A DNA stretch of 64,000 bases from Rothia sp. (in: high G+C Gram-positive bacteria) (lineage in GTDB: Bacteria > Actinomycetota > Actinomycetes > Actinomycetales > Micrococcaceae): NCBI GenBank assembly GCA_030529845.1, contig JAUMWB010000003.1, forward strand, positions 248,001-312,000, in the 5' to 3' direction. A program made the position numbers and the translations under genes. Shown in pieces: positions 3,115 to 61,118 of this stretch (its first letter is position 1; every line of letters begins with the position of its first letter). The notes below the pieces were generated by a model, which saw only the letters and a list, made by a program, of their open reading frames with translations, had not been told where the DNA came from and did not search any database.

Positions 3115-3222
3115 GGCGCTACAGACGCGTCTCTGCCAGCGACCCTCTCGCTCCTCGCCTGGGGGCTCGTCGCGATTCACGCCAGCCCCGAGCCAGCTGG
3201 CTTAAGACGCGTCTGTAACGCC
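3115..3222 (+). repeat. Variable-arm structured element, copy 1
   Basis: A 108-bp intergenic element. The outer arms at 3115-3132 and 3205-3222 are 18-bp complements with one G-T pair. An inner GCCAGC/GCTGGC stem encloses a core containing GACCCTCTCGC and GCGATTCACGCCAGCC. The same core recurs at 37222-37331, 54961-55074, 58691-58803 and 61019-61118 with different arms. It lies 46 bp after the glyS stop, oriented with glyS. Confidence 0.75.
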
Positions 3223-3240
3223 TAGAGACGGTACAGAAAA

Positions 3241-3273
3241 GTCGCCCCTCCCCACAGCGGGAGAGGCGACTTT
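3241..3273. terminator. Bidirectional terminator between glyS and GNAT gene
   Basis: The stem GTCGCC...GGCGAC, extended by CCC/GGG, is followed by TTT on the plus strand and preceded by AAAA, which is a U-run for the minus strand. It can serve both the plus-strand glyS transcript and the convergent acetyltransferase. Confidence 0.75.
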
Positions 3274-3318
3274 CGTCTATTGAAGGAGCACGCAGGTACC
3301 CTAGAAGAACAATATCTT

Positions 3319-3939
3319 CTAGATTTCTACCCGCTTCAAGTCCAGGGTCAGGTGGCCTGCCACTGAACGGGCGGCCTCCCAGTCGCTACGCAGCACAGCT
3401 TTCAGTACCGCGTCGTGGTACTCGCCGTCGATCAGGAAGGCCTCGCGGCGGCGTCCTTCGGGCACAAAGCCGCAGGAGGTATAGACATGCTTGGCTCGCT
3501 CGTTGAAGTCCAGCACCTCCAGCTCAATGCGGTGCAGATCCAGCTTCTCAAAGCCGTAATCCACCAGGAGCTTGGTCGCCTCGGTTCCATAGCCCTTGTT
3601 CTGGCCTGCCTGACCAATGGCGATACGGTAGTTGACCGACCCATTGTCGGGGTCGTACTCGTTGAAGGCTACCTCGCCCACATACTTCTGCTGGTCGAGC
3701 GCAAAAATAGCCAGGTCAAGGCGGTTCTTCTTCTCGTTGCGGCGGGAGTACCACTCGCGGGTCTTAGCCTCATCGAAGGGGTGGGTCTCCGTTGAGCGGG
3801 AGTGCACGGTGCCGGTCTTGATCAGTACCTCCGGCTCCTGCAAAATCTCAATCATGGCGTCGATGGCTTCAGCATCAAAGGGGCGTAGCTCAATGCGGGA
3901 ACCGGTCAGAATGGGCTTGTGGGCAAGGGGAGAAGTCAT
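3319..3939 (-). CDS. GNAT N-acetyltransferase, RimJ/RimL type
   Basis: A 206-aa acetyltransferase with the layout of the RimJ/RimL group: N-terminal LTGSRIELRPF strand, YVGEVAFNEYD, the acetyl-CoA pyrophosphate loop QNKGYGTEATKLLVDYGF, then LHRIELEVLDFNERAKHVY and the CGFVPEGRRREA end. This group acetylates protein N-termini, polyamines or small amines; the substrate here cannot be told. It stands alone on the minus strand, convergent with glyS and divergent from another GNAT gene. An 18-bp palindrome lies about 30 bp before its start. Confidence 0.85.
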   Translation of the reverse strand: MTSPLAHKPILTGSRIELRPFDAEAIDAMIEILQEPEVLIKTGTVHSRSTETHPFDEAKTREWYSRRNEKKNRLDLAIFALDQQKYVGEVAFNEYDPDNGSVNYRIAIGQAGQNKGYGTEATKLLVDYGFEKLDLHRIELEVLDFNERAKHVYTSCGFVPEGRRREAFLIDGEYHDAVLKAVLRSDWEAARSVAGHLTLDLKRVEI

Positions 3940-3969
3940 AACACCACGCTAAACAATAGAGTCAAACAA

Positions 3970-3987
3970 ACTTTAAGCCCTTAAAGT
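3970..3987. promoter_or_regulatory. Palindrome between divergent GNAT genes
   Basis: Perfect 8-bp arms ACTTTAAG/CTTAAAGT around a 2-bp centre, AT-rich against a GC-rich background, 31 bp upstream of the minus-strand acetyltransferase start. It has the size of an operator, but no regulator can be assigned. Confidence 0.35.
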
Positions 3988-4136
3988 CTAGCCGGTAACG
4001 GGCCGGTGAAATCAAGATGCCACCTGCCCGGTTCACGCTCAGCGTGCAGGCTTTCTGCCGCACGGACGCCCGCAGGTAGGGTAGGGGCGCTAAAGTAGAT
4101 GGGTACACCCCGGCCGGCTACCCGAAAGGCACCACC

Positions 4137-5111
4137 ATGAGCACCGCCAAGAATACCTATACCCTGCGCCCCTGGCGCGAAGGCGACACCCTAGCCCTGC
4201 TCGAATACTGGCACGATGCCGAAAATCGGCAGGTAGCCGCCTTCCGCTCGTCCTTCGGTCCCGATTCCGACACCCGCTTCTCCCGCACCCTCATCGCCGA
4301 GCACCAGGGCGTTCCCGTAGCCGCAGGTACCGTTTACGAGACCGACCTGCACCCCAACAGGCTCTGGTCCTACATCGAAGTAGCCCCCGAGCACCGCCGG
4401 GCAGGCCTGGGCAGCTTGCTCCTAGAGGCCCTGAAGGAAGCCGCCGCCTCATCTTCTTGCGGCGTTTCGGCTTTCCGCGCCACCGTGGAGCCAGAATCCA
4501 CCGGCCTTACCTTCGCCTTAGCCCGTGGTTTCACGGCGGCCCAGCGCTCACGTATGGTGCGCATCGAAGCTGGGGCGGTGCCGTCCGTACCCCTGCGCCA
4601 GGATGACTCCGAACGCATCACCCAGGCCATCGAAGACCTAGCCACCGGGTCAGTGGAACTGACCCAGCGCTTCTGGGACTTCTACCGGGCCGTGCACACC
4701 TGGGATGAACCTGCCGACCTCCCCATAGGCCGCATTAACCGTCTCTTCCTCTCCGACGAGGCTGAAGCCCTGGGCGCCGTCGTGCTGCGCGACGATGTGC
4801 TGCGTGCCCAGGCCAACGGTAAGAAGGGCGACATTATCGCCTTTGCTGTAAGCTACCGCCCCATCGAGGTAGATGCTGGCCAGATGCCGGTCTCTGAAGA
4901 TGACGCCACCGAAATTACCATCGGCTACCGGGTGAGCCACCCCGGCGCCCGTGAGGCTATCATGCAGCTGCTCTCTGTGCTGACCGGCTCCTACGCTGTG
5001 CAGATTGAGGTCGATGACTCTATGGAGGATCTGGCCGTGCTGATTGACCAGTTGCTGAAGATGGGGGCTGCCACCGTGACCAGTGAGTCCCTGGTGCTGG
5101 TTGACGACTAG
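4137..5111 (+). CDS. GNAT acetyltransferase, two-domain
   Basis: A 324-aa protein with two GNAT-like halves. The N-terminal half (to about residue 150) has LRPWREGDTLALLEYWHDA and an acetyl-CoA loop EHRRAGLGSLLLEALKEAA. The C-terminal half is diverged, with ITIGYRVSHPGAREAIMQLL. Actinobacteria carry many two-domain GNATs, often with one inactive half; mycothiol synthase MshD has this architecture, but I see no proof that this is MshD. The ATG at 4137 follows GAAAGG. The alkyltransferase-like gene starts 6 bp after its stop, so the two probably form an operon. Confidence 0.75.
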   Translation: MSTAKNTYTLRPWREGDTLALLEYWHDAENRQVAAFRSSFGPDSDTRFSRTLIAEHQGVPVAAGTVYETDLHPNRLWSYIEVAPEHRRAGLGSLLLEALKEAAASSSCGVSAFRATVEPESTGLTFALARGFTAAQRSRMVRIEAGAVPSVPLRQDDSERITQAIEDLATGSVELTQRFWDFYRAVHTWDEPADLPIGRINRLFLSDEAEALGAVVLRDDVLRAQANGKKGDIIAFAVSYRPIEVDAGQMPVSEDDATEITIGYRVSHPGAREAIMQLLSVLTGSYAVQIEVDDSMEDLAVLIDQLLKMGAATVTSESLVLVDD

Positions 5112-5117
5112 TAACCC

Positions 5118-5453
5118 ATGGACGATACACGTGTAGAGAGAATCTTGCGTGTGGTTGAGTGCGTGCCTGCCGGGCAGGTTGCTACCTACGGGGACGTCGG
5201 CGCCGTAGCCGGTGAGTCTCCTCGGCTGGTGGGGCGCGTGTTGGCGACCTGGGGATCGAATGTTCCTTGGTGGCGTGTCTGTAATGCCCGCGGTGAGATA
5301 CCGGGGCACCTAGAGCAGGCTTACTCCCATTGGCAGGACGAGGGAACCCCGCTGACCGGCGCGGGGCGGGTCGCTCTGGGCGCTGCCCGTATAGACGCGG
5401 ACGCCCTGGCCCGTCTCTCTGCCCAGCGGTTAGCTGAGCTGGGGGAAGGCTAG
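5118..5453 (+). CDS. Alkyltransferase-like (ATL) protein, MGMT family
   Basis: A 111-aa DNA-binding protein of the O6-alkylguanine-DNA alkyltransferase fold. In true MGMT the active site is PCHRV; here the same place reads PWWRV (Pro50-Trp51-Trp52-Arg53-Val54), so the acceptor cysteine is replaced by tryptophan. ATL proteins such as E. coli YbaZ (PWHRV) bind alkylated guanine and hand it to nucleotide excision repair. Cys55 follows the motif but is not at the acceptor position. VPAGQVATYGDVGAVAG and the arginine-finger region LVGRVL are also present. It closely follows the two-domain GNAT gene. Confidence 0.85.
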   Translation: MDDTRVERILRVVECVPAGQVATYGDVGAVAGESPRLVGRVLATWGSNVPWWRVCNARGEIPGHLEQAYSHWQDEGTPLTGAGRVALGAARIDADALARLSAQRLAELGEG

Positions 5454-5460
5454 GCAGGAG

Positions 5461-5844
5461 CTAGACACCGATGTCGCGGGCCCTACGTCTCTGAGCTGAA
5501 GCCTCTCGTGCACTGTAACTTTCACTGAGGTACCCAATAAGTGGCCAAGCAATAGCGTGTTGGACTTCCATATCCCACACGGTATTGAGAATCGCCCAAA
5601 AAACCCAGGTGAACGTTAGTGTCATGGCAAACAGTCCAGGTCGCCATATCACGGTACGGCTGCCCTTGGGGCGCAGGAACCATTGAGTAAGCACTGTTCC
5701 AACAGCCACGAGACCAGCTGCCCAGAGGGCCAGGGCTAGTTCATGGCTGAGATACCAGGTGATACAACCGTGGAGACCCCACAGTCCCACCATGATGAGG
5801 GGTGCGTAGATGCTGTTACCAGGGGAGGGGCGTCGAGTCGTCAT
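5461..5844 (-). CDS. Small integral membrane protein, unknown
   Basis: A 127-aa hydrophobic protein with three likely membrane segments (about residues 12-33, 35-55 and 68-92) and a basic C-terminal tail rich in Ser, Ala and Arg. I do not recognise a family. Its ATG lies inside the end of the HTH-DUF3887 regulator gene (29-nt overlap) with only a weak ribosome site, which suggests translational coupling and a shared role. It is convergent with the ATL gene. Confidence 0.6.
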   Translation of the reverse strand: MTTRRPSPGNSIYAPLIMVGLWGLHGCITWYLSHELALALWAAGLVAVGTVLTQWFLRPKGSRTVIWRPGLFAMTLTFTWVFWAILNTVWDMEVQHAIAWPLIGYLSESYSAREASAQRRRARDIGV

Positions 5845-6355
5845 TGAAGATCACCAATCCTGTTACTTTGCGGGCTGAGTTGAAAGAGAGTTGGCCGACC
5901 GGCTCACCAGCCTCGTGGCGCAGCCGGTAGGTCAGGGTAAAGCCGGAGCCTGCCTGCTCCACTACCGTTTTCTTGACTTCGACAAAGGGGCCATTTGCCT
6001 CAAGCACCTGCTGCCAGGTTTTCAGAATCTTGCGTTTAGACAGTAACCGGGTGGTTGTGTAGGTCATGTGGCTGTGTACATGCTCAATGTCTTCGTGGGC
6101 AAGTGCGGCGAAGAGAGCCTCGGTGACTTGCTCCAGTTCCACCTGAATCTGCGAGAGAGACCGGGCGTTATAGACGGTCTCGGAAAAGCGCTGGGCCGCA
6201 GCCTGCTTAGTCACTCCGATAGCCGAGCCGATGAGCTGCCAGGTGGCGCCGCCTGCGCGAGCTGCCTGCACGGCGTCCTCAAGCGCACGGGTTGCCTGGC
6301 TAACCTGCTCGTTAGCGGCACGGACGGCGGTAATGCGCGGGTCGTTGGACTGCAC
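5816..6355 (-). CDS. HTH-DUF3887 regulator, paralog A
   Basis: A 179-aa protein. A helix-turn-helix lies near residues 35-60 (ATWQLIGSAIGVTKQAAAQ) and is followed by a domain resembling DUF3887/NTF2-like sequence that ends PVGQLSFNSARKVTGLVIF and a final PW. The gene at 8614-9213 shares the same layout and motifs. I place the start at the GTG at 6355, preceded by AAAGGAGG; a longer frame from 6460 lacks a ribosome site and would cross the probable promoter. It is probably autoregulated through the GTCAA...TTGAC sites upstream. The ligand is unknown. Confidence 0.7.
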   Translation of the reverse strand: MQSNDPRITAVRAANEQVSQATRALEDAVQAARAGGATWQLIGSAIGVTKQAAAQRFSETVYNARSLSQIQVELEQVTEALFAALAHEDIEHVHSHMTYTTTRLLSKRKILKTWQQVLEANGPFVEVKKTVVEQAGSGFTLTYRLRHEAGEPVGQLSFNSARKVTGLVIFNDDSTPLPW

Positions 6356-6388
6356 GGGGCCTCCTTTCTTAGGCGCTTTCTTAGGTGC

Positions 6389-6453
6389 GTCAAGCAATCT
6401 TGACGTATCACAAGTATGTGATTGTTCTTGGGTGCCTGTCAAGAGGTTTTGAC
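6389..6453 (-). promoter_or_regulatory. Promoter and paired GTCAA-N6-TTGAC sites
   Basis: On the minus strand a -35 TTGACA (6437-6442) and a -10-like CATACT (6413-6418) are 18 bp apart, upstream of the regulator at 5816-6355. Two 16-bp inverted repeats, GTCAA-N6-TTGAC, lie at 6438-6453, overlapping the -35, and at 6389-6404, just past the expected transcription start. This layout fits repression, probably autoregulation. Confidence 0.5.
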
Positions 6454-6563
6454 GATTCACCGATTGGGTTTGAGGTGCTGCCGATGCTGAGAGTGTGTAT
6501 TTGAAAAATGTTTACTTTAAAACTAACCCCCTGTTACTTTTTTACTGCATCTGTCAAAAATGA

Positions 6564-6602
6564 CATGACTAGGCATGTCATTGGTTGGCATGCCTGGTCA
6601 TG
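6564..6602. repeat. Inverted repeat upstream of PRC-barrel gene
   Basis: Two 14-bp arms, CATGACTAGGCATG and CATGCCTGGTCATG, pair with one mismatch (G-T in RNA) around an 11-bp spacer. It lies in the 392-bp AT-rich gap between regulator A (minus) and the PRC-barrel gene (plus), about 150 bp before the latter. It may be an operator for either gene. The rest of the gap shows no gene. Confidence 0.5.
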
Positions 6603-6747
6603 CTCTATTTTTCACCTCAGAGTGAAATATTGTCTTTTTTCTTAAAAAGTTCGCTTAGTAGTTGCTCAGCCTACTGATAGCACTCATCGGGAGAGCTCGG
6701 CTGGCGCAACACCTCGTACTGAGAGTCGCAAAGAAAGGCAATAGCTC

Positions 6748-7530
6748 ATGGCTACCAACGAAACCATCGAAACCCTGCGCAACAGCACCGTATTCGGCAC
6801 TGACGGCGAAAAGATCGGCAAGGTAGGCGAGCTCTACCTCGACGCCCAGACCGGCGAACCCACCTTCGTCACCGTCAACACCGGTTTCTTCGGCACCAAC
6901 GAATCCTTTATCCCCGTGGACAAGGCCCGCTACGCAGGCGAAGAAATCCACGTTCCCTACACCAAGGAATTCGTCAAGGACGCCCCCAACATCGCAGAAG
7001 ACGGCGAACTCTCACCCGCTGAAGAGCAGCGCCTCTACGAGTACTACTCACTCACCTCAGGCACCGCAACCGCAGGTACCGCAACTGCCGGTGTAGCTAA
7101 CACCGAGCGTCCTGCCGCCGACGCCCACGCGGCTCAGGCCACCGCAACTGCCGAGAACGGCGACGTCGTTGCCCACGAAGAGCGCCTGAACGTTGGCACC
7201 GCCACCAGCGCAACACAGACCGGCCAGGTCCGCTTGCGCAAGGTCGTCCGCACCGAAACCGAAACCGTCGAGGTGCCCGTCCGCAAGGAAGAAATCGTTG
7301 TTGAGCGCACCAACCTCAAGGACGGCGAAGTTGTAGAAAACTACGACTTCGACTCCGCCGAGGCACAGGCAGACGTTACCGTCACCGCCCACGAAGAGCG
7401 CCCCGTTGTCTCCACCGAAACCGTAGCCACCGAGCGTGTCTCAGTTGGCAAGGAAGTACGCACCGACACCGAGCGCGTCTCAACCGACGTCCGCAAGGAA
7501 GAAATCGTTGTAGAAGGCGACAACAAGTAA
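6748..7530 (+). CDS. PRC-barrel and DUF2382 domain stress protein
   Basis: A 260-aa soluble protein. A PRC-barrel domain (about residues 8-80: STVFGTDGEKIGKVGELYLD, then VTVNTGFFGTNESFIPVDKA) is joined by an Ala/Thr-rich linker to a YsnF-type DUF2382 domain (about 145-258). DUF2382 contains two related units, each ending VRKEEIVVE. Such proteins are linked to general stress responses in Bacillus, Deinococcus and actinobacteria; the biochemical role is not established. AAAGG precedes the ATG. The next gene is a stress-type dehydrogenase, and both are flanked by HTH-DUF3887 regulators. Confidence 0.85.
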   Translation: MATNETIETLRNSTVFGTDGEKIGKVGELYLDAQTGEPTFVTVNTGFFGTNESFIPVDKARYAGEEIHVPYTKEFVKDAPNIAEDGELSPAEEQRLYEYYSLTSGTATAGTATAGVANTERPAADAHAAQATATAENGDVVAHEERLNVGTATSATQTGQVRLRKVVRTETETVEVPVRKEEIVVERTNLKDGEVVENYDFDSAEAQADVTVTAHEERPVVSTETVATERVSVGKEVRTDTERVSTDVRKEEIVVEGDNK

Positions 7531-7573
7531 GTCTAGATACAAGCCTCTAGCACTGAACTATAGCCTCATGCAG

Positions 7574-7602
7574 AGCCCCGGGAAGAACCGCCCGGGGCTT
7601 TT
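7574..7602 (+). terminator. Rho-independent terminator after PRC-barrel gene
   Basis: A perfect 9-bp stem AGCCCCGGG/CCCGGGGCT with an 8-nt loop and a short T-run, 43 bp after the stop. Confidence 0.85.
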
Positions 7603-7629
7603 GCTTACTCTCTACCCCAAGGAAGAACA

Positions 7630-8514
7630 ATGACTCACCTCGTAGACCCCCGCAGTAAATACCCCGTCATCGCTCCGCCCAAGCAGACTCAGCCCGAACC
7701 CGGTCTCGACGCTGAAATGACCCCCAAAGCCGACCTGGGTATCGACTCCTACCAGGGATTGGGCCGCCTTAAGGGTCGCCGTGCCCTGATTACCGGAGGT
7801 GACTCCGGGCTGGGAGCGGCCGTTGCCATTGCCTACGCCCGTGAGGGGGCCAATGTGGCGATTTCTTACCTGCCAGAAGAAGAGCCCGATGCTGAACTCA
7901 TTCTTAAGGCGGTTGAGGAAGCTGGGGTGAAGGCGCTGGCGCTACCGGGGGATCTGCGTGAGCTAAAGCAGTGCCAGGCCATCGTTGAAAAGACCGTAGA
8001 GGCTTTCGGAGGTCTCGATATCGTGGTCAATAATGCTAGCCGTCAGGTGTGGCATGAAAGGATTGAGGATCTCAGCGATGAGGACTTCGACCACACGATG
8101 AAGGCTAATGTGTATTCGGCCTACCGCGTTACTAAGGCGGCTGTGCCTCACCTTAAGCCTGGCTCTTCGATTATTTTCACCTCTTCGATTCAGGCGTATG
8201 AGCCCTCAGAGACGCTGCTGGACTACGCCCTGACTAAGGCTGCCCAGAATAACTTCAGTAAGGGGCTGGCGCAGGCTTTGGCTCCTCGCGGTATTCGCGT
8301 GAATGCTGTGGCGCCGGGGCCCTTCTGGATTCCGTTGCAGCCCAGCTATGGCCAGCCCATGGAGAAGTTGACCCAGTTTGGTCAGGACACTCCTCTGAGC
8401 CGTGCCGGTCAGCCAGCTGAAATCGCGGGTGCCTACGTTTTCCTAGCATCCGATGACGCCTCCTACGTTGCGGGCGAGACCTTAGGTCTTACCGGCGGAC
8501 GCCCCACCCCGTAG
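7630..8514 (+). CDS. Short-chain dehydrogenase, general-stress type
   Basis: A classical SDR oxidoreductase of 294 aa with an N-terminal extension of about 45 residues, as in E. coli YghA and the Bacillus general stress SDRs. The NAD(P)-binding glycine motif is TGGDSGLGAAVA, with NNAS after it. FTSSIQAY holds the catalytic Ser, and YALTK the catalytic Tyr199 and Lys203. The C-terminus LTGGRPTP is typical. AAGGAAG lies just before the ATG. The substrate is unknown. It sits behind the PRC-barrel gene and its terminator, so it probably has its own promoter or depends on readthrough. Confidence 0.88.
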   Translation: MTHLVDPRSKYPVIAPPKQTQPEPGLDAEMTPKADLGIDSYQGLGRLKGRRALITGGDSGLGAAVAIAYAREGANVAISYLPEEEPDAELILKAVEEAGVKALALPGDLRELKQCQAIVEKTVEAFGGLDIVVNNASRQVWHERIEDLSDEDFDHTMKANVYSAYRVTKAAVPHLKPGSSIIFTSSIQAYEPSETLLDYALTKAAQNNFSKGLAQALAPRGIRVNAVAPGPFWIPLQPSYGQPMEKLTQFGQDTPLSRAGQPAEIAGAYVFLASDDASYVAGETLGLTGGRPTP

Positions 8515-8534
8515 GTCTCACATCTAGAGCACTG

Positions 8535-8589
8535 AGCCTGCCCCCACCTCAGAGACCTCTAAGGTCTCTGAGGTGGGGGCAGGCTTTTT
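8535..8589. terminator. Strong terminator between convergent genes
   Basis: A perfect 24-bp stem (8535-8558 with 8562-8585), a 3-nt loop and a plus-strand T-run. It ends the dehydrogenase transcript; the minus-strand regulator converges on it but would lack a U-run. Confidence 0.92.
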
Positions 8590-8613
8590 GGTGCAGGCCT
8601 ATAAGAGGGAGGG

Positions 8614-9213
8614 TTACCAGGGGAACTCAGCTGAGTCGTTCAAATAGATGATGAAGCCAATAACTTTTCTGCGGGAGTTGAAGGCAATCTGGCCGACGGG
8701 TTTACCGTCTGTATGGTCTAGTGTGAAGTCTGCGATTGCGAAGATTGAGGTGTTGGGGACTTTGATAGTGGCCGAGAAAACCTTGAATTCGTGGGGGTTT
8801 GGGGTGTGGAGATTGAGGGAATCAACGCGCTGAAAATCTCCACATCCCTCCAATACTTCTTGCCAAACCTCGGCAAGTTTTTTCTTGCTGAGTCCTCGTT
8901 TCGCGGTGAAAGAGAAGTAGCTGTGCACCTTCTCCCACTCGTGTTCTCCGATGCGGTGAAGAACGGCTTTTGCGGTGTTGGTGAGGTGCGCTTGAGTTGT
9001 TTCTGAGAAGTGCATGGGGGCGATCTCCTGAATAATCTTTGAGTATTTTTGGGCTGCTGCCTGGCGGCTAACCCCTAATACTGAGCCAATCTCACCCCAG
9101 GAGTAGCCATCATTTTTAGCGACCGCAATGCAGTGGTTGAGATGGTGTTCAGAGTCCTGAGCGGCCTCCTGGGCTAGAGCTATGTTTTCGAGTTGGGTGG
9201 GCAGATTTTCCAT
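8614..9213 (-). CDS. HTH-DUF3887 regulator, paralog B
   Basis: A 199-aa paralog of the protein at 5816-6355, with the same order: an N-terminal helical stretch, the HTH YSWGEIGSVLGVSRQAAAQ, a helical middle containing KKLAEVWQEVLE, and a C-terminal DUF3887-like sheet ending PVGQIAFNSRRKVIGFIIY and PW. The ATG at 9213 is preceded by AGAAGG; a longer start at 9240 would be TTG without a ribosome site. A good promoter lies upstream. Together with paralog A it brackets the PRC-barrel and SDR genes. Confidence 0.72.
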   Translation of the reverse strand: MENLPTQLENIALAQEAAQDSEHHLNHCIAVAKNDGYSWGEIGSVLGVSRQAAAQKYSKIIQEIAPMHFSETTQAHLTNTAKAVLHRIGEHEWEKVHSYFSFTAKRGLSKKKLAEVWQEVLEGCGDFQRVDSLNLHTPNPHEFKVFSATIKVPNTSIFAIADFTLDHTDGKPVGQIAFNSRRKVIGFIIYLNDSAEFPW

Positions 9214-9264
9214 GAAGCCTTCTAGATGTAAAAGTGTCAATTATTTATTTCTCTTTCACGTTTA

Positions 9265-9294
9265 ATAATGCACACGAGGGTGTGAATGTGTCAA
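9265..9294 (-). promoter_or_regulatory. Promoter of HTH-DUF3887 paralog B
   Basis: Minus strand: -35 TTGACA (9289-9294) and -10 CATTAT (9265-9270), 18 bp apart. A small CACAC/GTGTG hairpin lies in the spacer and could be an operator. The rest of 9214-9488 holds no gene. Confidence 0.6.
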
Positions 9295-9488
9295 GGTTTT
9301 ATTTCGTCATTACATAATGGTGCGTAAGCTGTGCCTAGAACGGGGCTTCACATGATGAAGCGCACTCGGTCAAGCTGTCTAACCCAAGCTGGACCGGGAA
9401 GGGCGTCCTCACCGGCTACTTTGTATCAAAGCTGGCACTGTGAGATGCCACGCTGACCGCCTCTGGTCAAGTGTGCGAAAATAGCACA

Positions 9489-10682: not shown

Positions 10683-10704
10683 AGATGCGGACGGCCGGAC
10701 CCGC

Positions 10705-11124: not shown

Positions 11125-11174
11125 AGAAGACGACTGTACCTTCCAGTAGGGGGCACAAACCATAGGTTACATTG

Positions 11175-11236
11175 AGTGCTTACCAGAATCGCGTAGTGCC
11201 CACGCCGTGTGTGGACGCTGTGCGATTCTTGTAGAC
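11175..11236. repeat. 62-bp hairpin repeat, copy 1
   Basis: Differs at only two positions from the copy at 13219-13280. A 12-bp stem, AGAATCGCGTAG with CTGTGCGATTCT, contains two G-T pairs here that are G-C in the other copy, and a CCAC/GTGG inner stem lies inside. The two copies are direct repeats around the yeeE-tusA-DUF6176 module. Otherwise 11125-11379 holds no gene. Confidence 0.8.
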
Positions 11237-11379
11237 GGTGGAATAGGGCCTAAGGCGCGCTGCCTGCCCTACCCTCACGATAGACAAGAAGCAAACGCGT
11301 ATTGCGAACTGTTGCCTTAGGTTTCCCCATATGAATGCAATGTTTACTGGCCCTCATAGCTGTACCTAGCATGGGGTAC

Positions 11380-12420: not shown

Positions 12421-12429
12421 GGAGTCCCT

Positions 12430-13216: not shown

Positions 13217-13218
13217 AT

Positions 13219-37221: not shown

Positions 37222-37331
37222 GGCGACCCAGGTTCGCAGCGAAGCTGCTGGCTCGGTGGCTGGCGTGAATCGCCTTGTGAGCGAAGCGAACCAGGCGAGA
37301 GGGTCGGCAGCGAGCGCGAACCTGGGGAGCC
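37222..37331 (-). repeat. Variable-arm structured element, copy 3 (in pfl operon)
   Basis: 110 bp between pflB and the grcA-like gene, 11 bp after the pflB stop and oriented with it. The arms GGCGACCCAGGTTCGC and GCGAACCTGGGGAGCC pair at 14 of 16 positions. Read on the minus strand, the core GACCCTCTCGCC and GGCGATTCACGCCAGCC matches the copy after infB. Confidence 0.75.
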
Positions 37332-51419: not shown

Positions 51420-51443
51420 GAGAGCTGACTAACATATTTGCCG

Positions 51444-51554: not shown

Positions 51555-51588
51555 TAAACAGGTCAACAACACGAAGGGAGCGCCCCAG

Positions 51589-54933: not shown

Positions 54934-54960
54934 AGCGACTTAGTACCTAAGTCCTTTTCT

Positions 54961-55074
54961 AGGCACCCTAGGGTTCGCGCTTGCTGCAGACCCTCTCGCC
55001 TGGTTCGCTTCGCTCACAAGGCGATTCACGCCAGCCGTCGAGCCAGCAGCTTCGCCGCGAACCCTAGGGTGCCT
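54961..55074 (+). repeat. Variable-arm structured element, copy 2
   Basis: 114 bp, 28 bp after infB and oriented with it. Perfect 19-bp arms (54961-54979 with 55056-55074, starting AGGCACCCTAGGGTTCGCG) are followed by TTT, so it may also terminate. The core GACCCTCTCGCC and GCGATTCACGCCAGCC is shared with the other copies. Confidence 0.8.
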
Positions 55075-55116
55075 TTACACTTAAACGTAGACACCTCTCT
55101 AGAGAAGGAGAACATC

Positions 55117-55554
55117 ATGGCAGATCCGGCACGCGCCGCCCGCCTAGCCGACCGCATCAAGGTCATCGTTGCCCAGGCCCTCGAACGCCGCATTAAGGAC
55201 CCCCGCCTCGGCTTCATCACCGTCACCGACGCCCGCGTCACCAACGACCTCCAGCACGCCACCATCTACTACACTGTCTTCGGCTCCGAAGAAGAGCAGG
55301 CCTCCACCAAGGCCGCCCTCGAATCAGCCAAGGGCATCCTGCGCTCGGAAGTAGGTAAGAATATTACCGCGCGTCTGACCCCCACCCTCACCTTCGTCCC
55401 CGACGAAGTTCCTGTCAACGCAGCCCACATCGAAGACCTGCTGCGCAAGACCAAGGAACGCGACGCCGAACTGGCTGCTGCCCGTGAAGGCGCTGAATAC
55501 GCCGGTGGCGAGGACGCCTACAAGAACACTGAGACTGAGGAAGACGAAGCCTAA
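55117..55554 (+). CDS. rbfA: Ribosome-binding factor A
   Basis: A 145-aa 30S maturation and cold-adaptation factor with a KH-like fold. ARLADRIKVIVAQALERRI, DPRLGFITVTDARVTNDLQH and LTPTLTFVPDEVPVNAAHIE are typical, and a short acidic tail follows. The ATG at 55117 has AGAAGGAG upstream. A longer frame from 55069 overlaps the structured element and is rejected. truB starts 3 bp after the stop. Confidence 0.96.
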   Translation: MADPARAARLADRIKVIVAQALERRIKDPRLGFITVTDARVTNDLQHATIYYTVFGSEEEQASTKAALESAKGILRSEVGKNITARLTPTLTFVPDEVPVNAAHIEDLLRKTKERDAELAAAREGAEYAGGEDAYKNTETEEDEA

Positions 55555-55557
55555 ACC

Positions 55558-56595
55558 GTGGCCAAGAAAGCACCCACCGGGCCCTCGGGCCTAATTGTCG
55601 TTGATAAACCCGCCGGATTAACCAGCCACGATGTGGTTTCCAAGATGCGGTGGATTGCTGGCACCCGCAAAGTCGGGCACGCTGGAACCCTCGACCCCAT
55701 GGCCACGGGGGTGCTCATTCTTGGCGTCAATAAGGCAACCCGCCTACTGACCTGGGTGGTGGGGGAGACTAAAACCTATACCGCCACGATTCGTCTTGGC
55801 GTCTCAACCCTCACCGACGACGCGGACGGCGACGCCACCGCTATTGCTGAAGAGGGTACGCTAGCGGCCGTAAGCGAGGACGCCATCAGGCGGCACATCG
55901 CCGAGCTTACCGGCGACATTATGCAGGTACCCTCTGCTGTCTCTGCTATCAAAGTGAACGGGGTGCGGTCCTACGCTCGTGTACGCTCCGGCGAAGATGT
56001 AGAGCTCGACGCCCGCCCGATCACCGTGCACTCCTTCGAGCTGCACGAAATGCGCCTCACCACCGCTAGCTACCAGCTGGGCGACGAAGAGGTGAGCGCC
56101 GACGTCCTCGATCTCGACGTCACCGTTGTGTGTTCGGCCGGTACCTATATCCGGGCCCTAGCCCGCGACCTGGGGGCCGCCCTCGGAATCGGCGCCCATC
56201 TTACTGCCCTGCGCCGCACCGCCATCGGTGACATCCGTGCTGACGACGCCCACACCCTCGACGAACTCATCGCCGCGAGAGAAGCAGACCAGGCAGCCCC
56301 CCTGCTACCCATCGAAGAAGCAGCCCGCCGTCTCTTTGAGGTTCGTCAGCTCACTGCCGCCGAAGCAACCGACCTTGCCAATGGCCGCCGTATTAGCCCT
56401 ACTGAAGGCAGCGCGCCAGCTATCCCCCGCCGCACAACCGGCTCCACCGGCGGGCACGACAAACCCACCACCGACGGCATTAGCGCAGCCTTCGCCCCGG
56501 ATGGTACCCTCGTAGCCCTTATCGAAAACACCCGCTTCCGCCGCGAATATGTCGCCGCCCCCGTGCTGGTCTTCGAAGCCGGTCGAACCTTCTAG
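55558..56595 (+). CDS. truB: tRNA pseudouridine-55 synthase
   Basis: A 345-aa enzyme that makes pseudouridine 55 in the tRNA T-loop. GLIVVDKPAGLTSHDVVSKM and GHAGTLDPMATGVLILG contain the catalytic Asp46; YTATIRLGVSTLTDDADGD and AGTYIRALARDLG follow. A poorly conserved insertion of about 25 residues (around 280-305, SAPAIPRRTTGSTGGHD) precedes the last strand. The GTG lies 3 bp after rbfA, so translation is coupled. Confidence 0.96.
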   Translation: MAKKAPTGPSGLIVVDKPAGLTSHDVVSKMRWIAGTRKVGHAGTLDPMATGVLILGVNKATRLLTWVVGETKTYTATIRLGVSTLTDDADGDATAIAEEGTLAAVSEDAIRRHIAELTGDIMQVPSAVSAIKVNGVRSYARVRSGEDVELDARPITVHSFELHEMRLTTASYQLGDEEVSADVLDLDVTVVCSAGTYIRALARDLGAALGIGAHLTALRRTAIGDIRADDAHTLDELIAAREADQAAPLLPIEEAARRLFEVRQLTAAEATDLANGRRISPTEGSAPAIPRRTTGSTGGHDKPTTDGISAAFAPDGTLVALIENTRFRREYVAAPVLVFEAGRTF

Positions 56596-56607
56596 GAGTC
56601 CCACACC

Positions 56608-56982
56608 ATGATGATCGCCGGACTTGACCTCTGGTTCTGGATTAGCCTTGCCCTCGGTACCGCCTCTTTCCTGATCTGCCTCACCAGATTCCTCCGCGGC
56701 GCTGCACCCGACGACTGGTCACAGGGATCAGTCATCGCTCTCGAAGCCTTCCTGATTGTTTACCTGGTCGGCTCCATCATTATGCAGACACTCACCGACG
56801 GGCCCAGCGGCGACTGGCTCGAATACTACGGATATCTGCTCACCGCCATGATCATTCCAGTAGGAACCTTCATCTGGTCCCTGGCCGAACGCACCCGCTG
56901 GTCAACCCTGGTACTAGGGCTAACCGGGCCGGTGCTGATTATCATGGTGCACCGTATGAACATGCTCTGGTACTACTATTAG
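56608..56982 (+). CDS. Small polytopic membrane protein
   Basis: A 124-aa protein with four hydrophobic segments (about residues 6-26, 43-62, 72-92 and 97-118) and the end MNMLWYYY. I do not recognise a family. The ribosome site AGGAG overlaps the truB stop, so it is probably the last or next gene of that operon. Its position between truB and ribF suggests no clear function. Confidence 0.65.
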   Translation: MMIAGLDLWFWISLALGTASFLICLTRFLRGAAPDDWSQGSVIALEAFLIVYLVGSIIMQTLTDGPSGDWLEYYGYLLTAMIIPVGTFIWSLAERTRWSTLVLGLTGPVLIIMVHRMNMLWYYY

Positions 56983-57079
56983 GCAGGTGCACTGGGACAT
57001 GGCCACAGGTGAGCGCAGGGCGTGCGCTCACGCCGACTCAAGAGCAGCATCAACATTGCATCGGAGATGGAAGAAGACA

Positions 57080-57502
57080 ATGGATCAAACACAGAACAAA
57101 GCTGCCGCTACGAAAAACAGCGGCTTCGGCCGCCTGCTCGTTGTCATCTACGGGGTCTTTACCCTGTCGGCCGGGGCCCGGGCCCTCTACCAGGTCATCC
57201 GTAAGTTCGACGAAGCCCCGCTTTCTATCAGCCTGTCAGCTCTCTCAGCTCTCATCTACCTGGTCGCCACTATCGCCCTGGCTAAGAAGGGGGAGGGGGC
57301 ATGGAAGGTCTCCCTGCTTGCTGTCGGTATCGAAATGGCTGGTGTGCTCCTGATTGGCATCTTCTCCTACCTGCAACCCCAGCACTTTGAACTGGCCTCC
57401 GTCTGGTCTCACTTTGGATCCGGCTACGGCTATATCCCCTTGGTTCTCCCCATGGTGGGCCTCTGGTGGCTCAACAAAACCCGCCCTGCCCGCACCCGCT
57501 AG
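57080..57502 (+). CDS. Integral membrane protein, unknown
   Basis: A 140-aa protein with four predicted membrane helices, beginning MDQTQNKAAATKNSGFGR and a first helix LLVVIYGVFTLSAGARALYQ. Similar proteins of about this length lie near truB/ribF in actinobacteria, but the function is unknown. The ATG at 57080 follows GGAAGAAG; a longer frame from 56987 is Arg-rich without hydrophobic sequence and is less likely. Confidence 0.68.
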   Translation: MDQTQNKAAATKNSGFGRLLVVIYGVFTLSAGARALYQVIRKFDEAPLSISLSALSALIYLVATIALAKKGEGAWKVSLLAVGIEMAGVLLIGIFSYLQPQHFELASVWSHFGSGYGYIPLVLPMVGLWWLNKTRPARTR

Positions 57503-57583
57503 GGGTCGGCGTCCGTCCGCCCCTCAGCAGAAGCCCCCAAATACGCGTAGTATAGACACGAAGCAACCCAACCGAGGAGCACC

Positions 57584-58540
57584 GTGAAGCGCTTTACCGA
57601 TCTCGCCCAGATCCCCGCCGACTTCGGCCCCACCGTGGTCACCATCGGCAACTTCGATGGCGTACACATCGGCCACCAAAAAGTGCTCTCCACCCTGGTC
57701 AATACTGCCCGGGTTCACGGACTGTCCTCCGTTGCGGTTTCTTTCGACCCCCACCCCGCCCGTGTCCACGGGCCCGCGGGGGTGCACATTGAAATTATGG
57801 GGCAGGACGGCCGCCAGCAGATTCTTGCCGACCTCGGCGTCGACTACTATCTGCTCCTGCACTACAACCTTGCCTTTGCCGCTCAAACCCCCGAAGAATT
57901 CGTCAAACGTACTTTCGTTGACGCTCTCAAGGCCAAGTTCGTGGTTATTGGCGATGACGTGCGCTTTGGCACCAAGAACTCCGGCGACCTGAACACCATG
58001 AAAGAACTCGGCCACAAGTACGGCTTTGAGGTGCTGGTGGTTGAAGACCTGCTGGCCCACGATGATCGCCGCTGCTCATCCACCTCTATCCGCCAGCTCC
58101 TAGCTGAGGGTAGGGTCGCTGACGCTGCCTCAATTCTGGGCCGCAACCACTATATGAGCGGCGAAGTGGTGCACGGAGCTGCCCGCGGCCGCGAACTGGG
58201 CTTCCCCACCGCCAATATGGATGTTGACTCGGTCGGCCTGGTTCCCGGCGACGGAGTGTACGCAGGCTGGCTGATGGACGAGGCAGGCACCCGCCACCCC
58301 GTAGCTGTCTCGGTAGGCACTAACCCCACCTTCGAGGGCATCACCACCCGCCAGGTCGAAGCCCACGTAATCGGCCGCCCCCAAGAGAAGGTGGAAGACT
58401 TCAACCTCTACGGGCAACACGTCACCCTCGAATTCGTTGACTACCTGCGCGGCATGGTTGCCTACACCGGCGTTGAGGCGCTGATCGAGCAGATGCACAC
58501 CGACGTTCAACAGGCTAAAACCATCCTCGGCATCAGCTAG
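57584..58540 (+). CDS. ribF: Bifunctional riboflavin kinase/FAD synthetase
   Basis: A 318-aa enzyme that turns riboflavin into FMN and FAD. The N-terminal adenylyltransferase has VTIGNFDGVHIGHQKVL and SSTSIRQLLAEGRV. The C-terminal kinase has GRELGFPTANMDVD and the GDGVYAGW stretch. GAGGAGC precedes the GTG start, and TAGTATAGAC about 35 bp upstream looks like a -10 region, so it may have its own promoter. A strong terminator follows. Confidence 0.97.
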   Translation: MKRFTDLAQIPADFGPTVVTIGNFDGVHIGHQKVLSTLVNTARVHGLSSVAVSFDPHPARVHGPAGVHIEIMGQDGRQQILADLGVDYYLLLHYNLAFAAQTPEEFVKRTFVDALKAKFVVIGDDVRFGTKNSGDLNTMKELGHKYGFEVLVVEDLLAHDDRRCSSTSIRQLLAEGRVADAASILGRNHYMSGEVVHGAARGRELGFPTANMDVDSVGLVPGDGVYAGWLMDEAGTRHPVAVSVGTNPTFEGITTRQVEAHVIGRPQEKVEDFNLYGQHVTLEFVDYLRGMVAYTGVEALIEQMHTDVQQAKTILGIS

Positions 58541-58550
58541 AGTACAGAGA

Positions 58551-58589
58551 AAAGTTCCCGGAATAAGAACTCTTATTCCGGGAACTTTT
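58551..58589 (+). terminator. Terminator after ribF
   Basis: A perfect 17-bp stem starting AAAGTTCCCGGAATAAG, with a 4-nt loop and a TTTT end. A's before the stem would give a U-run on the other strand too. Confidence 0.92.
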
Positions 58590-58605
58590 CTATGAGAGAT
58601 GATGG

Positions 58606-58695
58606 GCGCGGCAGGCTCATACTCACTTACCTTGCTGGGCTAAGAGGAAGGTGCGCGGCAGGCTCACGCTCGCTTACCTTGCTGGGCTGAGAGGA
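58606..58695 (+). repeat. 47-bp tandem repeat, two units
   Basis: Units at 58606-58648 and 58653-58695 share GCGCGGCAGGCTCA, then CTTACCTTGCTGGGCT and AGAGGA, with about four differences and a 47-bp period. There is no reading frame. It lies between the ribF terminator and a variable-arm element. Confidence 0.7.
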
Positions 58696-58803
58696 GGGGG
58701 TACGTGCTACAAGCCGACGTGGACCGGGGCTGGCGGTGAATCGCGACGAGCCCTCCAGGGCGAGATGCGAGAGCGGTTGTCGGCGGAGCACGTGCCCCTC
58801 CTC
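58691..58803 (-). repeat. Variable-arm structured element, copy 4
   Basis: 113 bp, 9 bp after the stop of the aldo/keto reductase and oriented with it. Outer arms GAGGAGGGGGTACGTGCT and AGCACGTGCCCCTCCTC pair with one bulge and one G-T. Minus-strand reading shows GCCGACAACCGCTCTCGC and the core GGCTCGTCGCGATTCACC, then GCCAGCCCC and GTCGGC. Confidence 0.75.
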
Positions 58804-58812
58804 TGTCTCTTC

Positions 58813-59637
58813 CTACATCTCTTCGTGAGTATTCGGGTCAAAGCCACGGCCTACGCCTGCTTCGAGCGCATCGATGCGGGCGACCTGCTCCTCGGTGAGT
58901 TCCCAGTCGAACACCGCCAGGTTCTCTTCCATGCGCAGGGCCTGAGAACTCTTGGGCAGGGGCACCAGGTTCTTCTGGACCTCCCAGCGCAGGATAACCT
59001 GCGCTACGGTCTTACCGGCCTCAGCGGCGATAGTTTCGAGGGCAGCGTCCTTAAGCAGGTCGGTCTTGCGGCCCAGGGGCGACCAGCACTGGGTCAAAAT
59101 GGCGTGGTTGAAGTTGTAAGCGGCCCAGTCCTGCTTTTGGGAGTAGGGGTGCAGCTCAATCTGGTTGATGGCCGGGGTGATGCCAGTTTCTTCAATCAGA
59201 CGGTCGATGTGCTCGGGCAGGAAGTTGGATACACCAATGGACTTGACCAGCCCTTCTTCCTGGGCTTTGATAAGTGCCCGCCAGGTATCGACGTAGAGGC
59301 CCTGGGAGGGGTTAGGCCAGTGGATCAGGTAGGCATCCAGGTAGTCAAAACCCATACGGCTCAGGGTGCCTTCGAGGGAGCGCAGGGCGGCATCGTAGCC
59401 GTGGTCGCGCCCCGGCAGCTTGGACTGCACGAAGATTTCATCGCGCGGGGTGCCTGAGCGCAGCACGCCGCGGGCAACGCCCACTTCGTTCTCGTAGTTC
59501 ACCGCAGTGTCGATCAGGCGGTAGCCGCGAGCGATGGCTTCAGAGACAGCAATCTCGGCATCTACGTTATTGAGCGGGTAGGTACCTAGCCCTAAGGGAG
59601 GGATAGAGGTGCCGTCGCGCAGGGTATGGTTTTGCAT
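58813..59637 (-). CDS. Aldo/keto reductase
   Basis: A 274-aa NADPH-dependent TIM-barrel reductase close to 2,5-diketo-gluconate reductases. The tetrad is Asp43, Tyr48, Lys73 and His106 (LIDTAVNYENE, SKLPG, LIHWP). The C-terminal cofactor motif LVPLPKSSQALRMEENL is present. The physiological substrate is unknown; carbonyl detoxification is common. GAGAGGAAAA precedes the ATG. It follows mtnN by 36 bp and is probably the third gene of the luxS operon. Confidence 0.93.
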   Translation of the reverse strand: MQNHTLRDGTSIPPLGLGTYPLNNVDAEIAVSEAIARGYRLIDTAVNYENEVGVARGVLRSGTPRDEIFVQSKLPGRDHGYDAALRSLEGTLSRMGFDYLDAYLIHWPNPSQGLYVDTWRALIKAQEEGLVKSIGVSNFLPEHIDRLIEETGITPAINQIELHPYSQKQDWAAYNFNHAILTQCWSPLGRKTDLLKDAALETIAAEAGKTVAQVILRWEVQKNLVPLPKSSQALRMEENLAVFDWELTEEQVARIDALEAGVGRGFDPNTHEEM

Positions 59638-59673
59638 TGGTTTTCCTCTCGGGTGGAGTGGTGCGGACGCGGG

Positions 59674-60414
59674 CTAGCGGCTAATCAGATCGAGCACCAG
59701 GGTGGCGCTTCGTTCGGCCACGATGGGGGCGTCCATGTGGAAGTCCTGGTCGGCAGCCGGACCGCAGAGGTCAGAGATACCGCGCACTGCAATGAAGGGC
59801 AGGGAACGGCTGGAGCTAATCTGGGCCAGGGAAGTGGTTTCCATGTCGGTAGACAGTGCCTGGGGGAAGAGCTGGCGGGTGTCTTTGACGTTGTGGGCGG
59901 TGACGAAGGAACCGCCGGCCAACATCTGCCCAAAGAGGGGGCTGCCCTCACCGGTGTAGGCTGCGGCTGCTGCCCGGGCCTTCTCAACCAGCACCGGGTC
60001 GGTGGCGTATGTGGCGGGCATGCCGGGAACCTGCCCGAACTCGTAGCCGAAGGCGGTGGCGTCCGCGTCCGTGTAGGTGTAGTCGGTGCCGATAGCCAGG
60101 TCGCCCACATTCACGTCGGCACGCAGGCCGCCAGCGGTACCGGCAGACACAATGACGCGCGGGGTGGGCACCAGGGCCAGGGCAGCAGTCAGGGCGCTAG
60201 CGGCATTGACCAGGCCAATCTTGGAGCGCACCAGCAGAATCTTCAACTCGTCAGTACCGGTGGCAAGCACCCGGGGGTAGAAGACAGCCTCACCCAGGGC
60301 ATAGCCCTCACCGACCGGTTCGGTCTTGCTCAGGAATGGAGCGGCTTCTTCATCCATGGCTACCTGCACGATAGCGGCGTTCTCAAAGCCAGAGGGGAGC
60401 GCAAAAGCCGACAT
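59674..60414 (-). CDS. mtnN: MTA/SAH nucleosidase
   Basis: A 246-aa purine nucleoside phosphorylase-fold enzyme that cleaves S-adenosylhomocysteine and methylthioadenosine, the step before LuxS. AMDEEAAPF near residue 20 includes the catalytic-site Glu; VVSAGTAG-like IVSAGTAGGL, DMETTSLAQ and RGISDLCG (catalytic Asp) follow. The ATG overlaps the luxS stop by one base (TAATG), so the genes are coupled. A longer frame from 60435 is not needed. Order luxS-mtnN is unusual to see in an actinobacterium. Confidence 0.92.
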   Translation of the reverse strand: MSAFALPSGFENAAIVQVAMDEEAAPFLSKTEPVGEGYALGEAVFYPRVLATGTDELKILLVRSKIGLVNAASALTAALALVPTPRVIVSAGTAGGLRADVNVGDLAIGTDYTYTDADATAFGYEFGQVPGMPATYATDPVLVEKARAAAAAYTGEGSPLFGQMLAGGSFVTAHNVKDTRQLFPQALSTDMETTSLAQISSSRSLPFIAVRGISDLCGPAADQDFHMDAPIVAERSATLVLDLISR

Positions 60415-60896
60415 TAGGCCATCACCTGCTCCCACTCGTCCTTCTTCTCCACAAAAGCACGAACCGCAGCCTGGGCCTCATCCAAGGAGTGGTTAGCGCC
60501 CCAGCCGCACTGCACCTCGTTCGCTGCCGGAACCTCATCGGCCTCCAGCAGGTCATTCATGGTGGCTTCAAGAACCTGCATGAAATCGGCAGGCTCAAGA
60601 CCTAGGGTCAGGGCGTAGAAACCGGTCTGGCAACCCATGGGGGAGAAGTCGATGAGAGCGTCGGTGTGATTGCGCATGTGGTGGGCGGTCATGTGCTCAA
60701 TCGAGTGAACCGCCTTCATGCCCAGGTGCCCCTTGTTTGGCTGGGTGAAACGCACATCGTACTTAATCAGGACGTCCCCGCCCGGCAGGGTCTTGCGGTC
60801 GGCTACACGCACGTAGGGGGCCGCCACAGCGGTATGATCCAGGTCGAAAGACTCAACGTTTGTCTTCTGCTTCTCAAAATTCTCAGTGATTTGCAT
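60414..60896 (-). CDS. luxS: S-ribosylhomocysteine lyase
   Basis: A 160-aa iron/zinc enzyme that cleaves S-ribosylhomocysteine to homocysteine and DPD, the precursor of autoinducer AI-2. The metal ligands are His64 and His68 in [13 protein letters not shown] and Cys130 in VQCGWG; Cys89 in MGCQTGFY is the catalytic residue. The ATG at 60896 has GGGAGA 9 nt upstream. It is the first gene of a minus-strand operon with mtnN and the aldo/keto reductase. A structured element lies about 120 bp upstream in the same orientation. Confidence 0.97.
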
Positions 60897-61018
60897 GCTT
60901 ACTATTCTCCCAGGCTCAGGGCACAAGCGCTAGCTGCGGAGTAATCTACTCACTATAGGCTGATTTGAACTAGCTCAACCCAACCCCAGCTCACACCGGC
61001 TAGACCGTTGGCGCGGCT

Positions 61019-61118
61019 AAGGCGCCCCTGAAAGCCGACGTGGAACGGGGCTGGCGGTGAATCACGGCGAGCCCTCCAGGGCGAGACGTGAGAGCGGTTG
61101 TCGGCGCAGGGGCGCCTT
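61019..61118 (-). repeat. Variable-arm structured element, copy 5
   Basis: 100 bp, between the divergent luxS and a small membrane gene. Perfect 12-bp arms AAGGCGCCCCTG/CAGGGGCGCCTT, then GCCGAC/GTCGGC, around the core with GTGATTCACC and GCCAGCCCC on the minus strand. It is the only copy not directly after a stop codon. Confidence 0.75.

What the first reader, a model, noticed from the sequence alone, without database searches (positions are those of the whole stretch)
3115..61118. Dispersed structured element with a conserved core and copy-specific complementary arms
Five intergenic copies (3115-3222, 37222-37331, 54961-55074, 58691-58803, 61019-61118), 100-114 bp each, share a core around CTCGC, GATTCAC, GCCAGCC. 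The flanking 12-19 bp arms differ in sequence between copies, yet within each copy they are complementary, as is a second inner stem (GCCAGC/GCTGGC, GCCGAC/GTCGGC and others). Four copies lie 9-46 bp after a stop codon, oriented with that gene (glyS, pflB, infB, aldo/keto reductase). This covariation points either to a selected RNA element at 3' ends or to a small mobile element that inserts into the loop of existing terminator palindromes. I know no described family with this layout in Micrococcaceae.
Basis: partly seen in the sequence, partly recalled or inferred. Interest (0 to 1): 0.82.

Follow-up and report, generated by a model that had tools for sequence, protein, structure and literature searches.

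The report
Flipping hairpin repeats in Rothia genomes
Rothia bacteria carry dozens of copies of a small hairpin-forming DNA repeat, mostly just behind genes, whose middle is shared between copies and can flip over while the long matching arms differ from copy to copy; the matching arms are therefore poor proof of a working RNA, but the folded middle itself looks selected on one strand.

Summary
All five copies exist. The genome has 55 model matches at E<=0.01; 20 of 35 Rothia genomes carry the repeat, and no match was found in the 31 other genera of the family that were sampled. Rfam has no such family.

Each copy is a long hairpin: copy-specific arms, a covarying inner stem, a conserved ~55-nt core (a ~25-nt short form exists) and a small covarying apical hairpin. 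Copies sit behind genes (44 convergent, 50 tandem, 4 divergent) and the core points either way.

(1) In 22 pairs of copies in this genome cores are >=90% identical but arms unrelated. (2) At three orthologous sites the core is inverted inside the same outer arms, once together with paired arm changes. Replication template switching predicts both and keeps arms complementary without selection. (3) The better-folding strand is the complement of the one described (117 of 117 copies; tandem G-A motif in 107; wobbles 54:17).

Most likely: a non-autonomous hairpin repeat whose core has spread between hairpins at gene ends, part of one subfamily as a MITE. How the core moves, and whether hairpins pre-exist, is not shown; close orthologs show no compensated arm changes.

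The parts
3115..3222 (+). copy 1 (behind glyS, convergent): 5' arm 3120-3132, inner stem 3135-3140, core 3141-3195, inner stem 3196-3201, 3' arm 3205-3217. The left flank 3089-3105 (AAAAGGACGGACGTGCG) matches the left arm of another copy that is intact in relatives.
37222..37331 (-). copy 2 (behind pflB, tandem pflB-pflA): core 37249-37305, arms 37227-37237 and 37316-37326
54961..55074 (+). copy 3 (infB-rbfA gap, tandem): arms 54962-54979 and 55056-55073, core 54989-55045
58691..58803 (-). copy 4 (behind aldo/keto reductase, convergent with ribF): core 58719-58778, inner stem 58713-58718 and 58779-58784
61019..61119 (-). copy 5 (between luxS and a + ORF, divergent): arms 61019-61030 and 61107-61119, inner stem 61034-61039 and 61100-61105, core 61040-61099

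Best explanation
This is a non-autonomous, hairpin-forming dispersed DNA repeat of a subset of Rothia. SHOWN: a conserved core of about 55 nt, or about 25 nt in a short form without the apical hairpin, sits in the loop of a long inverted repeat, mostly just behind genes, in either orientation. Near-identical cores sit in unrelated arms. The core is found inverted within the same outer arms at orthologous sites. INFERRED: (a) arm complementarity is kept largely by template switching during replication, one arm serving as template for the other, which also inverts the spacer; (b) the core spreads to new hairpins separately from the arms, by an enzyme not identified; (c) part of one subfamily (type B) was captured between the ends of a DDE insertion sequence and spread as a MITE; (d) the core, inner stem and apical hairpin are under selection to fold as a single strand, and that strand is the complement of the core as first described (5'-UGG..GGGGCUGGCGUGAAU-[hairpin with tandem G-A]-AGAGGGU-3'), either as ssDNA during mobility or as RNA.
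For: Copy number and range. Core and arms not inherited together: of 721 compared pairs of the 40 G000 copies, 91 have core identity >=0.9 and 22 of these have arm identity <=0.5, random 20-mers averaging 0.45. Inversion inside the same outer arms: glyS site forward in G018, G019, G020, G021, G029 and inverted in G004, G005, G016; locus (a) forward in G000, G004, G005, G019 and inverted in G018, G020; G000 C4:118302 against G029. In each case I read the breakpoints as lying in the outer arms. Paired arm changes: three between G005 and inverted G020 at locus (a), three between G007 and G008 at glyS. Arm homogenisation plus spacer inversion is what PMC8604942 (abstract and introduction read) and PMC8794818 (abstract and passages read) describe for template switching. 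Either orientation and 3'-end placement. Folded strand. Inner stem and apical stem covary. IS ends and transposase.
Against: No enzyme that moves the core was found: Y1_Tnp in 3 and RVT_1 in 4 of 35 genus genomes; no other enzyme family was searched. No clean insertion with a datable empty site: in the 18 filled/empty alignments I saw no plain hairpin with the same arms, intergenic DNA is too diverged, or the empty site keeps only one arm, which fits deletion as well as insertion. The two plain hairpins of G007 may be losses, and 4 of 11 G008 sites have no hairpin in G007. In 14 same-orientation ortholog comparisons there were 15 one-sided and no compensated changes, so arm repair at unflipped sites is not seen directly. 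The wobble bias is 15:6 in G000 alone (p=0.08), 19:3 in the distant genomes, and absent (4:4) among recent ortholog changes.
Confidence: 0.5

Rival explanations
1. Cis-acting RNA at mRNA 3' ends (terminator, stability or protein-binding element), kept by selection on the transcript.
For: Placement behind genes: 49 convergent, 48 tandem, 9 divergent of 106 copies, against background gaps 93, 372, 120; covarying inner and apical stems; plain hairpins at the glyS site in distant Rothia, with a clear T-tail in G003 and G034.
Against: Core direction is unrelated to gene direction (28 against 22) and flips between orthologs; T-runs are barely enriched at the arm ends; no compensated changes in close orthologs. 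3'-end placement is also where an insertion is best tolerated.
Confidence: 0.15
2. An ordinary MITE- or REP-like family that moves with its arms by a transposase; arms then diverge quickly while the core is conserved.
For: Type-B copies share arms. Two of them lie between ends like those of an ~880-bp IS with DDE_Tnp_4, three more have one such end directly beside them, and a 76-bp derivative without core exists. G003 copies share inner arms (by reading). Four G008 sites have no hairpin in G007, as a whole-hairpin insertion would leave.
Against: Type-A cores are near identical, including apical loops that are not conserved between types, yet their arms are at chance identity; orthologous arms change slowly (239 unchanged of 254 arm pairs in comparisons that required at least 72% arm identity).
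Confidence: 0.2
3. A family of small RNA genes read from the complementary strand, each with its own transcript, acting in trans.
For: Complementary strand folds better in 117 of 117 copies by RNA and by DNA parameters; tandem G-A motif in 107 of 117 (core strand 0, shuffled mean 11.5).
Against: Promoters and transcripts were not looked for; matches vary from 0 to 88 per genome within the genus; copies are present or absent at orthologous sites.
Confidence: 0.1

Closest known systems
REP/BIME elements with RAYT (Y1_Tnp) transposases; GTAG- and CGTC-tagged families (PMC3733652, passages read)
   Same: Many intergenic palindromic copies, predominantly between convergent or tandem genes; subfamilies with alternative complementary stems.
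   Different: REPs there have 5-13 bp stems and loops of 2-20 bp; here arms with inner stem have a median of 30 pairs around a ~55-nt core. Y1_Tnp was not found in 17 of the 20 genomes that carry the element.
MITEs of a DDE insertion sequence (IS5-type; the label is recalled, the domains are)
   Same: Some type-B copies lie within GAGGCTTATTCA-type terminal repeats of a DDE_Tnp_4 element.
   Different: Type-A copies printed here lack these ends and have unrelated arms.
Quasipalindromes and inverted repeats kept perfect by template switching (PMC8604942, PMC8794818)
   Same: Arm homogenisation, multi-site paired changes, inversion of the spacer.
   Different: Those reports concern yeast coding genes and rRNA and microRNA genes; here the spacer is itself a dispersed repeat family.
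Stem-loop repeat families of bacterial genomes (PMC2267715, passages and part of the abstract read)
   Same: Dispersed intergenic repeats with predicted common fold.
   Different: The word Rothia does not occur in that text; copy-specific arms around a shared core are not described in the passages seen.
Integron attC sites (recalled, no call)
   Same: Recognised by single-strand fold with variable stems and strand selectivity.
   Different: No attC core sites and no integrase were searched for; the conserved part is central here and terminal there.

Membership tests
Rfam RNA family | score above the gathering cut-off of any of 4227 families | tested here: not met
   Window: only 2 tRNAs and Actino-pnp. 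Six loci at E<=1: two microRNA-family matches below their cut-offs.
REP/RAYT | Y1_Tnp (REP-associated) transposase in genomes that carry the repeat | tested here: not met
   3 of 35 genus genomes have it (G004, G018, G019, all carriers); 20 of 35 carry the element.
REP/RAYT | GTAG or CGTC tag beside a short stem | not tested
   No systematic tag search was made.
MITE of a DDE insertion sequence | terminal inverted repeats shared with an autonomous IS in the genome | tested here: met
   For a part of type B only: ends at C2:116017-116175 and C5:174587-174731 enclose copies, one end lies beside copies at C3:289722, C3:52065 and C3:275597, and an IS at C2:525223-526103 has DDE_Tnp_4. Not seen around the type-A copies printed.
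MITE of a DDE insertion sequence | target-site duplication | not tested
   Empty sites were too diverged to define one.
Intrinsic transcription terminator | G+C-rich stem behind a gene | tested here: met
   placement, stems
Intrinsic transcription terminator | T-run directly behind the stem | tested here: not met
   116 copies: T-run >=3 at 21 and 25 arm ends against 10-16 at 25-55 nt away; T-run >=4 at 2 and 9 against 3-7. An earlier version of the test gave no enrichment. A few sites such as glyS do have one.
Group II intron or retroelement moved in trans | reverse transcriptase in carrier genomes | tested here: not met
   RVT_1 in 4 of 35 genomes at E<=0.001 (G001, G013, G018, G027); of these G018 and G027 carry the element, so 18 of 20 carriers lack it.
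Template-switch-maintained inverted repeat | spacer inversion with breakpoints in the arms | tested here: met
   three loci, breakpoints by reading
Template-switch-maintained inverted repeat | several arm sites converted together | tested here: inconclusive
   Three paired changes at an inverted site and three at the G007/G008 glyS site; none in 14 same-orientation comparisons.

The most novel reading that the evidence does not exclude
A new kind of mobile DNA: a 25-60-nt structured core that moves between pre-existing hairpins at gene ends, independently of the stems that hold it. It is recognised through its single-strand fold on the G-rich strand (tandem G-A motif, conserved GGGGCUGGCGUGAAU loop), and its host hairpins are kept perfect by template switching rather than by selection.
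Probability: 0.25. Interest if true: 0.85.

Novelty: new variant of a known kind. Interest (0 to 1): 0.58.

Why it matters
Covariation between stem sides is usually taken as proof of a functional RNA. Here is a large natural set (up to 88 matches per genome, 20 genomes) in which long stems covary strongly between copies while orthologs show inversion and one-sided change, so it can be used to separate mutational from selective covariation. It also offers a test bed for how very short DNA cores spread between palindromes without an identified transposase.

Tried and rejected
Rfam at gathering and relaxed thresholds: no family. Y1_Tnp and RVT_1 as trans mobilisers: too rare. Viral contigs (two exact patterns) and plasmids (57-nt core): no match. 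A regex-plus-duplex detector was far too permissive and was dropped. A T-run test with duplex-defined arm ends showed no enrichment and was replaced by one with local alignment ends, which shows slight enrichment, because duplexfold over-extended the arms. A pseudoknot between apical loop and core fits type A but not type B on reading (no count made). Dating the G007/G008 difference with G000, G005 and G029 failed for lack of alignable sites. Papers: one search (Rothia with repetitive extragenic palindromic) listed two papers on other subjects, search 71 (Rothia nasimurium, intergenic, repeat) none; searches with general terms listed related families and mechanisms. Only these six searches stand behind the statement that I found no description of this family. 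The wobble test was first run with all aligned cells (86 GT/TG against 156 AC/CA), then with isolated cells only.
Full report
OBSERVATION. The five copies are present as described. Aligned in one orientation they share a core, and arms and inner stems are complementary within each copy. Genes around them are glyS, pflB/pflA, infB/rbfA, an aldo/keto reductase opposite ribF, and luxS. Copies 1-4 lie 46, 11, 27 and 9 nt behind a stop codon; copy 5 lies in the divergent gap beside luxS.

COPY NUMBER AND RANGE. The own genome is 2,399,794 bases in 7 contigs. The 62-nt core finds 28 places; GATTCACGCCAGCC with up to one mismatch finds 38, the reversed control 0. A covariance model R1 built from 31 copies (A2) finds 59 matches at E<=0.1 and 55 at E<=0.01. 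In the genus 20 of 35 genomes have matches at E<=0.01, up to 88 in G018. Of 197 genomes drawn from 32 genera of the family, scored with stricter filters, 7 match, all in this genus. No Rfam family matches.

Arm, short internal loop, 5-6 bp inner stem, [GA]ACCCTCT, apical stem P2 with its loop, ATTCACGCCAGCC..GAGCCA, inner stem, arm. In 117 regex-defined distinct copies, orthologs included, the first four P2 positions pair in 117, 114, 112 and 95 of 117, with shuffled maxima of 0.90, 0.87, 0.75 and 0.49 as fractions; positions 5-8 pair in 44-66%. The inner stem pairs in 94-97 of 98 copies of its main register over five positions, counting AC/CA as pairs of the other strand; at the two most variable ones shuffled maxima are 58 and 62. 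The 19 copies in two other registers are too few to judge. Own arms have a median duplex energy of -45.1 kcal/mol against -23.2 for arms of different copies; 104 of 117 lie beyond the 5% point of crossed arms. The aligned set A3 of 84 distinct rows gives 92.3% paired cells against 63.5% shuffled. A short form without apical hairpin (arm-CCCTTAAACGCCAGCCCCGAGCCA-arm and variants) occurs in G002, G005, G008, G029, G032 and G034 and at C4:380447 of this genome. Some copies carry further small modules inside the core.

CORE AND ARMS HAVE SEPARATE HISTORIES. Among 721 compared pairs of the 40 G000 copies (pairs with core lengths differing by more than 4 were left out), 91 have core identity of at least 0.9; in 22 of these the arms have identity of 0.5 or less, random 20-mers averaging 0.45. 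By reading, the apical loops of these type-A cores are themselves near identical although they are not conserved between types, so the cores share recent ancestry and the arms do not. In contrast, orthologous arms change slowly: of 254 arm pairs in 14 same-orientation ortholog comparisons, 239 are unchanged and 15 changed on one side (4 AC type, 4 GT type, 7 other), none on both. That comparison required at least 72% arm identity and a shared outer flank, so more diverged and inverted sites are not in it, and some comparisons share a copy. It speaks against ongoing compensatory selection on the arms.

INVERSION. In the three-genome comparison (G000, G005, G029; 400 kb each) 70 directed element-by-genome checks gave 26 same orientation, 10 inverted, 33 absent by the model and 1 without synteny. 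Most sites with copies in both genomes are counted from both sides, some 'absent' sites hold degenerate copies, and 'same' is a statement about the site: at G000 251116 and 285217 the copies differ in type. One inverted locus (G000 217293 against G029) holds a different subtype and is not counted as a flip. Three loci show the same core inverted within the same outer arms: the glyS site (forward in G018, G019, G020, G021, G029; inverted in G004, G005, G016; G000 has another copy and G017 a chimera), locus (a) (forward in G000, G004, G005, G019; inverted in G018, G020), and C4:118302 of G000 against G029. By reading, the asymmetric inner parts move with the core in each case, so the crossovers lie in the outer arms. 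At locus (a) the inverted form has three arm pairs changed on both sides. At glyS the sister genomes G007 and G008 differ by three two-sided arm changes, and G007 has a plain hairpin with a 6-nt loop where G008 has the core. A second such pair is G008 C5:9020 against a plain hairpin in G007. Of the 11 G008 copies in that call, G007 has a plain hairpin at 2, a copy at 3, neither at 4, and no synteny at 2. Which state is older could not be settled.

INTERPRETATION OF THE COVARIATION. Template switching between inverted-repeat arms is reported to homogenise arms and to invert the spacer (PMC8604942, abstract and introduction read), and has been proposed to create and maintain RNA hairpins (PMC8794818, abstract and passages). 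Spacer inversion is clear here; joint conversion of several arm sites is suggested at two loci. Between-copy covariation of the arms is therefore not evidence for a selected RNA; it mainly says that different copies sit in different palindromes.

WHICH STRAND FOLDS. Isolated non-Watson-Crick cells inside arm helices are AC/CA 54 times, GT/TG 17 times and other 25 times on the core strand; G000 alone 15:6 (p=0.08), the distant-genome loci 19:3. AC on one strand is G-T/G-U on the other. The complementary, G-rich strand of the core with 12 nt on each side folds better in 117 of 117 copies by RNA parameters (median -38.4 against -27.4) and by DNA parameters (-17.8 against -14.1). Its apical hairpin holds GA-[GC..GC]-GA, a tandem sheared G-A pattern (motif recalled), in 107 of 117 copies, against 0 on the core strand and a mean of 11.5 in shuffles. 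The core and small stems thus look selected as a single strand, and it is the strand opposite to the one first described. Recent ortholog changes show no bias (4:4), and copies from orthologous loci are not independent, so the arm part of this argument is weaker than the core part. RNA and ssDNA cannot be told apart here.

PLACEMENT. With a rough codon-usage gene caller, of 112 copies 98 were classified (5 left out for short loci, 9 without genes on both sides): 44 convergent, 50 tandem, 4 divergent; in tandem gaps the core is sense 28 and antisense 22 times. On the 117-copy set, 106 classified: 49 convergent, 48 tandem (26 sense, 22 antisense), 9 divergent, against background gaps of 93, 372 and 120. 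Arms rarely end in T-runs. So the copies mark gene ends, but most do not look like U-tailed terminators, and a strand-specific 3'-UTR function of the core is unlikely.

MOBILITY. GAGGCTTATTCA-type inverted repeats enclose two type-B copies and one such end lies beside three more; the same ends bound an ~880-bp insertion sequence with a DDE_Tnp_4 transposase, and a 76-bp derivative without the core exists. That explains the spread of part of type B with its arms. It does not explain type A. Y1_Tnp and RVT_1 are absent from most carriers; other recombinases were not searched.

LIMITS. Copies from orthologous loci are not independent. Gene calls are rough. Filled/empty comparisons (18 alignments) give no clean insertion; at two loci the site without core keeps only the left arm, which deletion or insertion with copying of the flank would both explain. 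No transcript data were available.

Noticed in passing
window 62064-62132: Actino-pnp RNA motif (RF01688), 52.1 bits, close to the copy near luxS.
   Followed up: no
L255 (G000 C2:525223-526103): An ~880-bp insertion sequence (HTH_Tnp_4, DDE_Tnp_4) whose ends also flank some type-B copies; single ends and short derivatives occur elsewhere in the genome.
   Followed up: partly
window about 58590-58690: Repeats of type-B arm remnants (GGCAGGCTCAYRCTCRCTTACCTTGCTGGGCT) beside copy 4.
   Followed up: no
L025, L026, L015, L128, L124, L127: Small insertion modules inside cores (for example one with ACCGAGATT..AATCTCGGT, another beginning CCCGCCTTGCGGCGGATTCCG), seen in several genomes and partly shaped like the apical hairpin.
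   Followed up: no
L112, L214, L220 (G003): A G003 subfamily shares inner arms (GCAAGCACAGCA..) while the outermost arm bases differ between copies and are still complementary.
   Followed up: no
L275 (G017, glyS site): Chimera of the left half of one copy and the right half of another, suggesting recombination between neighbouring copies.
   Followed up: partly
L232 (G016) and L234 (G029), locus (a): Sites without core and right arm that keep left-arm sequence: deletion products or pre-insertion states.
   Followed up: partly
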